Below, one piece after another: positions 10,401 to 64,000 of a stretch of DNA of 64,000 nucleotides. The DNA lies in assembly GCA_964019135.1 (NCBI GenBank), contig OZ025248.1:47795670-47859669 (forward strand), read 5' to 3'. Numbering within the stretch: position 1 is the first letter of the stretch; each line of letters opens with the position of its first letter. The stretch is from Arenicola marina. Taxonomy: Eukaryota; Annelida; Polychaeta; Arenicolidae. The position numbers and the translations under genes were made by a program. The notes below the pieces were generated by a model. The model did no database searches, had not been told where the DNA came from, and saw only the letters and a program-made list of their open reading frames with translations.

Positions 10401-13400
10401 TCGTCACGGCACGCCTCCCAATGGCTGCCTTGTCGTCACGGCACGCCTCCCAATGGCTGCCTTGTCGTCACGGCACGCCTCCCTATGGCTGCCTTGTCGT
10501 CACGGCACGCCTCCCAATGGCTGCCTTGTCGTCACTGCACGCCTCCCTATGGCTGCCTTGCCGTCACGACACGCCTCCCAATGGCTGCTTGTCGTCACGG
10601 CACGCCTCCCAATGGCTGCCTTGTCGTCACGGCACGCCTCCCAAAGGCTGCCTTGTCGTCACGGCACGCCTCCCAATGGCTGCCTTGTCGTCACGGCACG
10701 CCTCCCAATGGCTGCCTTGTCGTCACGGCACGCCTCCCAATGGCTGCCTTGTCGTCACGGCACGCCTCCCAATGGCTGCCTTGTCGTCACGGCACGCCTC
10801 CCAATGGCTGCCTTGTCGTCACGGCACGCCTCCCAATGGCTGCCTTGTCGTCACGGCACGCCTCCCAATGGCTGCCTTGTCGTCACGGCACGCCTCCCAA
10901 TGGCTGCCTTGTCGTCACGGCACGCCTCCCAATGGCTGCCTTGTCGTCACGGCACGCCTCCCTATGGCTGCCTTGTCGTCACGGCACGCCTCCCAATGGC
11001 TGCCTTGTCGTCACGGCACGCCTCCCAATGGCTGCCTTGTCACGGCACGCCTCCCAATGGCTGCCTTGTCGTCACGGCACGCCTCCCAATGGCTGCCTTG
11101 TCGTCACGGCACGCCTCCCAATGGCTGCCTTGTCGTCACGGCACGCCTCCCTATGGCTGCCTTGTCGTCACGGCACGCCTCCCAATGGCTGCCTTGTCGT
11201 CACGGCACGCCTCCCAATGGCTGCCTTGTCGTCACGGCACGCCTCCCTATGGCTGCCTTGTCGTCACGGCACGCCTCCCTATGGCTGCCTTGTCGTCACG
11301 GCACGCCTCCCAATGGCTGCCTTGTCACGGCACGCCTCCCAATGGCTGCCTTGTCACGGCACGCCTCCCAATGACTGCCTTGTCGTCACGGCACGCCTCC
11401 CAATGGCTGCCTTGTCGTCACTGCACGCCTCCCAATGGCTGCCTTGTCGTCACGGCACGCCTCCCAATGGCTGCCTTGTCGTCACTGCACGCCTCCCAAT
11501 GGCTGCCTTGTCGTCACGGCACGCCTCCCAATGGCTGCCTTGTCGTCACTGCACGCCTCCCAATGGCTGCCTTGTCGTCACGGCACGCCTCCCAATGGCT
11601 GCCTTGTCGTCACGGCACGCCTCCCTATGGCTGCCTTGTCGTCACGGCACGCCTCCCTATGGCTGCCTTGTCACGGCACGCCTCCCAAAGGCTGCCTTGT
11701 CGTCACGGCACGCCTCCCAATGGCTGCCTTGTCGTCACGGCACGCCTCCCTATGGCTGCCTTGTCGTCACGGCACGCCTCCCTATGGCTGCCTTGTCGTT
11801 ACGGCAGCCGGAAATGCAGTCGTTTGTGTGAAATGTTTGTCTAAGTTACATCCGCGATTAAGCAATTATGTGATTAACATGTGAGCCGTACGGAAAGTGT
11901 TTCGCGCTATTATGGAAGAACGACTAAAATGCAGCATTTTGGGTTTAACGTGCACTCTTTCCATGGATGTAAATGCTATTAATTATGTAATATTATGTTA
12001 TTTTGCTATTGCTAATAGTTCAGTCTTAAAGGTTTGTTCCATATCTGTACTTGCATATCTAATCTGACGCATTATTAATCTTATATCCGACTAGACAAAA
12101 TCCCTAATATGATATATTAAATCCCAGTATGTGCAATAAATCTAAACCAGAAATCCAGGAGTATGTTTCCACTTTAGGTCGATGGGACCCACGATTGTCT
12201 GTGGTGTGTGTTGCAGGACATATCTCACTTCCTGGAGGCTGGCCGCCAGGGCGGGGGGGCGGCCTCGGGGGCCCCGACCCACCGGCTGGATGGCCTCCGC
12301 CACCTCCACCGCCGGCTGAGCCGCCAGAAGCCCGCGCTGGCCCACCTGGTGACGGCCGCCGCCCAGGGCGACCAGGACACCCTCCTCGTCACGCTCGTCT
12401 ACGAGCTGATCCAGCTGAGCCGCTGTCCTGATCCGGACACGGCCCAGGAGGCGGGCCGCTGTCTGGGCGAGGTGGGCCCCGTGGAGCTGCCGGTCATCGC
12501 CCTGAAGGACCGCCCCGGGAGTCCCGCTCTCCAGGCGGCCCTGCAGGTCTACGGCCACGACTCCAGAATGATGACGTACTGTCACGTGATCCATCGGCTG
12601 TACGACTACCTGGTCGACTCCAGGTGCGTGCCGCCCTGTACTCCCTGTGTGCCGCCCTGTACTCCCTGCGTGCCGCCCTGTACTCCCTGCGTGCCGCCAT
12701 GTACTCCCTGTGTGCCGCCTTGTACTCCCTGCGTGCCGCCCTGTACTCCCTGCCCTGTACTCCCTGTGTGCCGCCCTGTACTCCCTGTGTGCCGCTCTTT
12801 ACTCCCTGTGTGCCGCCCTGTACTCCCTGTGTGCCGCCCTGTACTCCTGCGTGCCGCCCTGTACCCCCTGTGTGCCGCCCTGTACTCCCTGCGTGCCGCC
12901 CTGTACTCCCTGCGTGCCGCCCTGTACTCCCTGTGTGCCGCCTTGTACTCCCTGCGTGCCGCCTTGTACTCCCCGCCTTGTACTCCCTGCGTGCCGCCCT
13001 GTACTCCCTGCGTGCCGCCTTGTACTCCCTGCGTGCCGCCTTGTACTCCCTGCGTGCCGCCTTGTACTCCCCGCCTTGTACTCCCTGCGTGCCGCCTTGT
13101 ACTCCCTGCGTGCCGCCCTGTACTCCCTGCCCTGTACTCCCTGTGTGCCGCCCTGTACTCCCTGCGTGCCGCCCTGTACTCCCTGTGCGCCGCCCTGTAC
13201 TCCCTGTGCGCCGCCCTGTACTCCCTGTGTGCCGCCCTGTACTCCCTGTGTGCCGCCTTGTACTCCCTGCGTGCCGCCTTGTACTCCCTGCGTGCCGCCC
13301 TGTACTCCCTGCCCTGTACTCCCTGTGTGCCGCCCTGTACTCCCTGCGTGCCGCCCTGTACTCCCTGTGCGCCGCCCTGTACTCCCTGTGCGCCGCCCTG

Positions 13401-64000: not shown

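What the first reader, a model, noticed from the sequence alone, without database searches (positions are those of the whole stretch)
12624..62736. Minisatellites repeatedly seeded from splice junctions in two unrelated genes
In at least eight cases the tandem unit is a copy of an exon end plus donor (ATM w2, w5, w10, w19, w22; ABCB w3) or an acceptor plus exon start (ATM w21, w23). Unit sizes differ (21, 88, 47, 41, 51, 48, 27, 61 bp), so these are independent events, not spread of one sequence. Chance location of so many arrays exactly on junctions is implausible. This resembles the mirage minisatellites I recall from the amphioxus Adh locus. The density here, and the occurrence on acceptor as well as donor sides, suggests a genome-wide process: slippage at R-loops over nascent introns, reverse-transcribed splicing intermediates, or selection tolerating repeats only where the real site stays intact.
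Basis: partly seen in the sequence, partly recalled or inferred. Interest (0 to 1): 0.92.

Follow-up and report, generated by a model that had tools for sequence, protein, structure and literature searches.

The report
Splice-junction repeat arrays in an animal
In this animal's genome the ends of exons, with the cut-here signal for RNA splicing attached, have been copied in tandem up to about 200 times inside genes, which makes it a natural test of how cells pick the one real splice site among many look-alikes.

Summary
The observation largely holds. The window carries ATM (28 exons) and a minus-strand ABCB1-like gene (16 exons). The eighth (21 bp, 12625-16412) starts at the donor but shows no exon copy.

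It extends beyond the window. In six gene models on four contigs of the same 867 Mb genome, 18 of 56 arrays span a junction (14 donor, 4 acceptor) and none lies wholly in exons (8.8 expected if neutral). GC-matched seeding expects 7.8 (P 8e-5); outside the window 11 of 35 against 5.0 (P 0.002). Inside the window alone P is 0.012 or 0.12, depending on the background.

This is the amphioxus 'mirage' type of minisatellite in what looks like a lophotrochozoan, with far longer arrays (up to 8.4 kb, 206 copies). Best account: tandem duplications arise often; those inside exons are purged; those across a donor survive because extra copies stay in the intron. A roughly two-fold excess at junctions remains unexplained, so a hotspot is possible, though a genome-wide word test gave it little support. 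R-loop and reverse-transcription mechanisms have no support here.

The parts
7258..44623 (+).
   Evidence: frames, GT-AG; human ATM PDB match
46093..64000 (-). ABCB1-like transporter gene, last 16 exons (first one cut by the window edge)
   Evidence: named homologs ABCB1/MDR1
17475..17971 (+). 88 bp x 5.6 donor array at ATM exon 5 (ends 17546); 72 exonic bases in first copy
   Evidence: (score 84)
20668..21762 (+). 47 bp x 23 donor array at ATM exon 10 (ends 20677); 10 exonic bases; GT intact in 23 of 23 decoys
   Evidence: (score 40)
28537..36975 (+). 41 bp x 206 donor array at ATM exon 19 (ends 28563); decoy consensus GAG|GTGAGT, true site GAG|GTCAGT; GT intact in 78% of 205 decoys
   Evidence: (score 41)
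39039..40537 (+). 27 bp x 56 acceptor array before ATM exon 21 (starts 40524); AG intact in 98% of 55 decoys; frame open through the array
   Evidence: (score 38)
41316..41547 (+). 51 bp x 4.5 donor array at ATM exon 22 (ends 41320)
   Evidence: (score 27)
41550..41993 (+). 61 bp x 7.3 acceptor array at ATM exon 23 (starts 41961); AG intact in 0 of 6 decoys (consensus CCG)
   Evidence: (score 54)
62454..62743 (-). 48 bp x 6 donor array at ABCB1-like exon 3 of the window (ends 62710)
   Evidence: (score 57)
12625..16412 (+). 21 bp array that begins at the second intron base after ATM exon 2 (ends 12623); no demonstrable exon copy
   Evidence: (score 0)
7431..11806 (+). 32 bp x 139 array that begins 14 bp after the donor of ATM exon 1; no significant exon similarity
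59005..59520 (-). 32/33 bp array that begins 4 bp after the donor of ABCB1-like exon 5; exon similarity not significant (20 of 133 other donors score as high)
52517..57097 (-). 43 bp x 107 array that begins 31 bp after the donor of ABCB1-like exon 9; no significant exon similarity
37253..38414 (+). 19 bp x 61 intronic array ending 30 bp before the acceptor of ATM exon 20; no significant exon similarity
21839..22348 (+). 22/44 bp intronic array, not junction-spanning
61599..62365 (-). 51 bp x 15 intronic array, not junction-spanning
50709..50907 (-). 43 bp x 4.7 intronic array, not junction-spanning
5261..6690 (+). 27 bp x 53 intronic array inside a 10.7 kb ATM intron, not junction-spanning

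Best explanation
These are mirage-type minisatellites. Shown here: a tandem unit of 20-133 bp includes part of an exon end plus its donor (less often an acceptor plus exon start), repeated about 3 to 206 times into the intron; most decoy sites keep intact GT or AG; and in the ABCB genes most host introns are shared with paralogs, so they are older than the arrays. Inferred: small tandem duplications arise often and at many places in this genome and grow by slippage or unequal exchange. Copies wholly inside exons are removed by selection. A duplication across a donor survives because the first-transcribed copy is still the real exon end, so all later copies fall inside the intron. An acceptor duplication puts the decoys first, so it should be tolerated less often, as observed. 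GC-rich exon edges and long units raise the number of junction-spanning seeds; a further roughly two-fold excess arises during expansion or from a birth bias, and which of the two is open.
For: Zero of 56 arrays (six gene models) are wholly exonic where 8.8 are expected under neutrality; 0 of 58 against 7.8 in the four fuller models when arrays of about two copies are included. Junction copies are found at 18 of 134 donors and 6 of 133 acceptors (Fisher p 0.017). Junction-spanning arrays: 18 of 56, GC-matched expectation 7.8, P 8.5e-5; outside the window 11 of 35 against 5.0, P 0.0022; without one array that rests on a weak exon 10 of 34, P 0.0085. Arrays listed with about two copies show no junction excess (2 of 19), so the excess appears in larger arrays. 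Junction arrays have more alike copies (median match 92.5% against 86.5%, p 0.014), as expected if they are younger or turn over faster. Only 4 of 18 junction periods are multiples of three. Of the 11 donor cases whose exon has a single open frame, 10 meet a stop within 81 nt after the exon, so those copies look intronic. Of seven ABCB introns with junction copies, six lie at the same alignment column and phase as an intron of another paralog.
Against: The excess over a GC-matched null (about 2.3-fold) is not explained by tolerance alone. In two of the three acceptor arrays examined the decoy AGs are almost all intact (98% of 55, 100% of 36) and even better kept than their neighbours (0.991 against 0.948; 1.000 against 0.900), which a simple first-acceptor rule would not predict; only the 61 bp array lost them. 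One donor array (54 bp, ABCC-like gene) stays in an open frame for the 1200 nt scanned. Among arrays of at least 2.8 copies, five intronic ones start within 35 bp after a donor (1.6 expected, P 0.02), which hints at a donor-side bias. No RNA was available, so use of the first donor is assumed.
Confidence: 0.6

Rival explanations
1. A mutational hotspot at 5' splice sites: something about exon-intron junctions in germline DNA (nucleosome edge, GC step, transcription-linked nicks or R-loops) makes tandem duplications start there preferentially.
For: About 2.3-fold excess over GC-matched expectation; intronic arrays that start within 35 bp after a donor, 5 against 1.6 (P 0.02); all three ABCB paralogs carry an unrelated array at or within 31 bp of the same homologous donor (alignment column 974).
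Against: Arrays listed with about two copies show no junction excess (2 of 19), though the sample is small. Genome-wide, spaced triples of the donor word AGGTAAGT are 5035 against 2729 for the reversed word, with singles 37627 against 33103: 1.6-fold per occurrence and weighted by copy number. Counted as arrays in the capped listings of the first about 19.6 Mb of C1, there are 8 for the donor word and 7 for the reversed word, so no clear excess. An equal excess just before acceptors (5 against 1.6) argues against a purely donor-specific cause.
Confidence: 0.22
2. Chance plus composition only: arrays seed at random, and intron-dense, GC-rich genes make junction overlap common.
For: In the window alone, with the background taken from the window, 7 of 18 against 4.6 GC-matched, P 0.12.
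Against: With the whole-gene background 7 of 21, P 0.012; all six models P 8.5e-5; outside the window P 0.0022.
Confidence: 0.1
3. The arrays are functional: stacked decoy sites act as a splicing regulator or intronic enhancer and are kept by selection.
For: Decoy GT is intact in 75-100% of copies in the 13 donor arrays examined, and decoy AG in two acceptor arrays is better kept than its neighbours.
Against: In the largest array GT columns are less conserved than their neighbours (0.89 against 0.96) and in the others roughly equal to them; junction copies occur at homologous introns in only one of the paralogs, apart from column 974.
Confidence: 0.05
4. The introns themselves were made by tandem duplication of exon pieces holding AGGT (Rogers-type intron gain), and the arrays are the remains.
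For: Known route in other genes (discussed in PMC3087553, passages read). One host intron, intron 1 of the C12 paralog model, is not shared with the other paralogs, but the exon that ends it is weakly supported.
Against: Six of seven ABCB host introns are shared at the same column and phase by paralogs.
Confidence: 0.03
5. Assembly artefact: collapsed or expanded repeats.
For: Repeats are hard to assemble; no reads were available.
Against: Copies within arrays differ from each other, no N in the window, and the same architecture recurs at other loci. Copy numbers may still be wrong.
Confidence: 0.03

Closest known systems
'Mirage' minisatellites of amphioxus (Adh3, globins BflGb6/BflGb9, troponin C, PGBD5)
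   Same: Tandem units spanning an exon-intron boundary, at donors and acceptors, with repeated AG/GT signals; unit sizes in a similar range (Adh3 10-72 bp, globins about 150-160 bp, PGBD5 60 and 108 bp). Source: passages of PMC3087553 and PMC3902484; the original Adh and troponin C papers were not read.
   Different: There: a few genes of cephalochordates, with 3 and 6 units in the globin case read. Here: probably a lophotrochozoan, up to about 206 copies and 8.4 kb, with a junction copy at 18 of 134 sampled donors and 6 of 133 acceptors.
Intron gain by tandem duplication (Rogers 1989; Zhuo 2007; Gao and Lynch 2009; potato RdRp case)
   Same: Tandem duplication of segments with AG/GT sites inside genes.
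   Different: Here six of seven tested host introns are older than the arrays. These works were seen only as citations in PMC3087553 and, for the potato case, in a search listing with the start of its abstract.
Earthworm metallothionein intron minisatellites and exon-4 duplications (PMC12783039)
   Same: A lophotrochozoan gene with minisatellites in intron 1 and fourth-exon duplications not seen in the final transcript (passages).
   Different: Splice-junction units were not described in the passages read.
C. elegans CeRep25B intronic minisatellite (PMC4039745)
   Same: Intronic minisatellite over-represented near alternative splicing regions (passages).
   Different: One dispersed family there; the junction units here are unrelated to each other and made from the local exon.

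Membership tests
Mirage minisatellite | Tandem repeat unit spans an exon-intron boundary | tested here: met
   Seven arrays in the window and eleven more in sampled loci overlap a junction
Mirage minisatellite | Both 5' and 3' boundaries can be repeated | tested here: met
   14 donor and 4 acceptor arrays of 56; one acceptor case rests on a weakly supported exon of the C12 ABCB1 paralog
Mirage minisatellite | Repeats retain AG/GT splice signals | tested here: met
   Examined 13 of the 14 donor arrays: GT kept in 75-100% of decoys in each; 3 of the 4 acceptor arrays: AG kept in two, lost in one. The amphioxus cases also keep the signals in many but not all repeats
Mirage minisatellite | Regular splicing is not disturbed | not testable with these tools
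   No RNA data held
Mirage minisatellite | Length instability between haplotypes or in somatic cells | not testable with these tools
   One assembly only
Mirage minisatellite | Found in cephalochordates (all cases read) | tested here: not met
   ATM tree places the window on the lophotrochozoan side of a weakly supported split (78/84), outside the 13 sampled molluscs (100/99); the tree held no cephalochordate; Branchiostoma ABCB1 proteins are 58-60% identical. This is a known range, not a defining structure
Intron gain by tandem duplication | The intron is new and derived from the duplicated exon segment | tested here: not met
   Six of seven ABCB host introns shared in position and phase with paralogs; ATM introns not tested

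The most novel reading that the evidence does not exclude
Exon-intron junctions, above all 5' splice sites, are true birth or growth hotspots for minisatellites in this lineage, so that a process tied to transcription, splicing or chromatin at junctions writes thousands of decoy splice sites into genes across the genome while the spliceosome still picks the outermost real site.
Probability: 0.23. Interest if true: 0.86.

Novelty: new variant of a known kind. Interest (0 to 1): 0.63.

Why it matters
How a cell picks one 5' splice site among identical neighbours is a long-standing question. Here nature supplies introns with a few to about 200 near-perfect decoy donors directly after the real one, in several genes and with unit lengths from 20 to 133 bp, so distance, order and strength rules could be read off RNA data. 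The only papers in which I saw such arrays described are the two amphioxus ones (searches; listings were seen, passages of four papers were read; subscription journals are mostly not held). Finding them dense in what looks like a lophotrochozoan suggests that they are either convergent or commoner than known. They also show a route by which introns swell and by which cryptic splice sites and, in principle, new exons are supplied.

Tried and rejected
Word-level test inside the sample: arrays holding GGTRAG 10 of 103 against a mean of 5.8 for permuted words, not significant. Genome-wide word test: see rivals; by array count in the capped listings 8 against 7, no clear excess.

Organism naming. 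ABCB best named hits by identity among the 120 listed are Capitella and Dimorphilus 62%, one unnamed protein 63%, Branchiostoma 58-60%; ATM best 49%, bivalves; COX1 fragment best named hit 88%, an entry labelled Octopus vulgaris, with full-length COX1 outside the length filter. In the ATM tree the window row also has an unusual letter make-up.

tRNA and Rfam scans of the window: nothing. Gapped re-tests of nine arrays at or near junctions: eight (21, 33, 32, 43, 20, 38, 44 and 19 bp units) gave no convincing exon copy; the 28 bp array of the C12 paralog gave a weak one. C4:21.54-21.60 Mb was fetched but had no usable gene model and was left out of the junction counts, though some of its units look like exon ends by eye.

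Dropped or changed rows. In some searches an array counted as junction-spanning if at least 4 exonic bases lie inside the TRF interval; w2 and the 33 bp array counted as intronic. The score cut of 12 was set after seeing the null (maximum 11). Three hits at 12-13 are borderline (ATM exon 19 acceptor, C19 paralog acceptor 12, C12 paralog donor 20), and the exon at the C12 acceptor 2 is weakly supported. The scan reached 3000 bases into each intron and did not include the last donor of the C12:42.4 Mb gene, which include. In one search one of the two 'two-copy' junction arrays is the 110 bp array reported under period 433; two-copy junction duplications that TRF did not list (ATM intron 21, ABCC-like intron 1, C12:42.4 Mb gene intron 1) are not in that count. 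'Outside the window' (11 of 38) contained three intronic arrays that lie in the window; one search corrects it to 11 of 35. First exons and one 20-base exon were dropped from the gene models before counting. The ABCC-like and C12:42.4 Mb genes were only partly modelled, so unmodelled exons there count as intron.

Full report
What is in the window. The + strand from 7258 to 44623 encodes the last 28 exons of ATM, and the - strand from 64000 to 46093 the last 16 exons of an ABCB1-like transporter. Exons were placed by hand and checked for GT-AG and frame, and the ABCB model was reproduced by a spliced protein aligner. The kinase end of ATM matches human ATM residues 2647-3055 of the PDB sequence, and the whole predicted piece residues 1540-3055.

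Check of the eight cases. For every modelled junction the exon end was compared with the adjoining intron; the null was the same exon end against introns of other junctions (3181 pairs, maximum score 11). The 21 bp array after ATM exon 2 scores 0 and aligns only with intron bases: it abuts the donor but is not shown to hold exon sequence.

Chance in the window. With seeds drawn from the whole two genes, 7 of 21 arrays span a junction where 2.0 are expected under uniform seeding (P 0.0019) and 2.8 with GC matched (P 0.012). Exons are GC-rich (56-58%) and collapsed introns GC-poor (40-44%). With seeds drawn only from the genes' parts inside the window, 7 of 18 arrays span a junction where 2.45 (P 0.0056) or, GC-matched, 4.6 (P 0.12) are expected. 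The window alone is therefore suggestive, not decisive.

Beyond the window. The window lies in an 867 Mb assembly (C1:47795670-47859669). Flanks and four other ABC-transporter regions were fetched, plus one region left out of the junction counts for want of a gene model: 324,000 bases in all including the window, of which 111,418 (34%) lie in TRF arrays. Gene models covered nearly complete ATM, three ABCB1 paralogs (one of them partial) and two partly modelled ABC genes, on contigs C1, C4, C12 and C19. Junction copies were found at 18 of 134 donors and 6 of 133 acceptors (Fisher p 0.017). Of 56 arrays of at least 2.8 copies, 14 span a donor, 4 an acceptor, 38 lie in introns and 0 in exons; 8.8 exonic arrays are expected under neutrality. 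Expected junction-spanning: 5.4 uniform (P 3e-6), 7.8 GC-matched (P 8.5e-5). Outside the window: 11 of 35, GC-matched 5.0, P 0.0022; without the array that rests on a weak exon 10 of 34, P 0.0085.

A test located without gene models. Three copies of AGGTAAGT spaced 15-45 bases were sought genome-wide. From the capped list I read off eight distinct arrays on C1 and fetched their 5' edges. In three the array continues from the end of a coding exon of a recognisable family: ALDH1L1-type aldehyde dehydrogenase, tubulin-tyrosine ligase-like, and BLTP1-like C-terminal region. A fourth (L038) has a plausible open exon with no Pfam match. One is uncertain (L042), two show no coding exon by eye (L037, L040), and in one the edge was not reached (L036). 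No control arrays were fetched for comparison. Genome-wide counts are 5035 triples against 2729 for the reversed word, with single words 37,627 against 33,103: 1.6-fold per occurrence, copy-weighted. By array count in the capped lists of the first about 19.6 Mb of C1 it is 8 against 7. This word test therefore gives little support to a genome-wide donor excess, while it does show that donor arrays with real exons occur in unrelated genes.

Anatomy. In 13 of the 14 donor arrays (the 20 bp one was not examined) the decoy GT is intact in 75-100% of copies; in the 41 bp array the decoy consensus reads GAG|GTGAGT while the true site is GAG|GTCAGT. In two of three acceptor arrays examined the AG is kept in 98-100% of decoys; in the 61 bp array in none of six. 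Junction periods are multiples of three in 4 of 18. Of 11 donor cases whose exon has one open frame, 10 meet a stop within 81 nt after the exon; the 54 bp array of the ABCC-like gene stays open for the 1200 nt scanned; where the exon has two open frames the true one was not fixed. The 27 bp acceptor array is open in ATM's frame for 1512 nt. Junction arrays have longer units (median 51.5 against 30 bp), are longer (864 against 321 bp) and have more alike copies (92.5% against 86.5%) than intronic ones.

Age of the introns. Of seven ABCB-paralog introns that carry junction copies, six have the same alignment column and phase as an intron in at least one other paralog; the seventh rests on a weak exon. 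The arrays therefore came after those introns. For ATM I recall that several human exon boundaries near the kinase domain coincide with those here, but that rests on memory and no call.

Mechanism. Shown: junction-spanning tandem units, retained decoys, absence from exons, donor bias, excess over a GC-matched null in the sampled genes. Inferred: frequent duplication at many places, purging from exons, survival at donors because the first copy remains the real exon end, lower tolerance at acceptors because decoys come first. Against it: intact decoy acceptors in two arrays, and the unexplained two-fold excess. A birth hotspot stays open: intronic arrays of at least 2.8 copies start within 35 bp after a donor more often than expected (5 against 1.6, P 0.02), but the same holds just before acceptors (5 against 1.6, P 0.02), and arrays listed with about two copies show no junction excess (2 of 19 against 2.5 to 2.9; all).

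Known kin. Passages of PMC3087553 and PMC3902484 describe 'mirages' in amphioxus Adh3, globin, troponin C and PGBD5 genes, with both boundary types and apparently normal splicing. The structure here meets the structural features I could test. It differs in host: the ATM tree puts the window on the lophotrochozoan side of a weakly supported split (78/84), outside the 13 sampled molluscs (100/99), with no close relative, and Branchiostoma ABCB1 proteins are 58-60% identical. It differs also in scale.

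Noticed in passing
window 3-2042 (-): Open, apparently intronless TRIM-NHL-like gene (RING, B-box and NHL repeats by eye, no family search run) lying antisense inside a 10.7 kb ATM intron; an 11 bp array whose minus strand reads TCAGGTAACCG (2202-2333) sits just upstream.
   Followed up: partly
window about 3420-3660 and 23469-23660; L039 about 108-370 (reverse complement); perhaps 26166-26400: tRNA-derived SINE-like copies sharing 'gttcgagccccgctgtggccatgt' exactly at 3504 and 23533 of the window and, by eye, in an unlinked locus; a more distant copy may lie near 26166.
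   Followed up: partly
ABCB paralogs, alignment column 974 (window donor 57129; C12 paralog donor 28317 of the joined stretch; C19 paralog exon 9 donor): Three paralogs each carry a different, unrelated array at or within 31 bp of the same homologous donor (43, 28 and 110 bp units); rough chance about 0.04 by my own reckoning, not by a call.
   Followed up: partly
window 39039-40606: The 27 bp acceptor array is a multiple of three and open in frame with ATM exon 21 for 1512 nt, so use of an upstream decoy acceptor would insert a nine-residue repeat into ATM.
   Followed up: partly
L014 to L017 joined, 4176-25690 (C4:4.40 Mb): ABCC-like gene with junction copies at 5 of 8 modelled donors and 0 of 7 acceptors, including one 41 bp two-copy duplication.
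   Followed up: yes
G000 C1:605201-612276: ALDH1L1-like exon followed by roughly 6 kb of a 39 bp donor array.
   Followed up: partly
L029 to L031 joined (C12:42.40 Mb): 84% of this 30 kb lies in tandem arrays, including an 11 bp unit repeated about 389 times.
   Followed up: no
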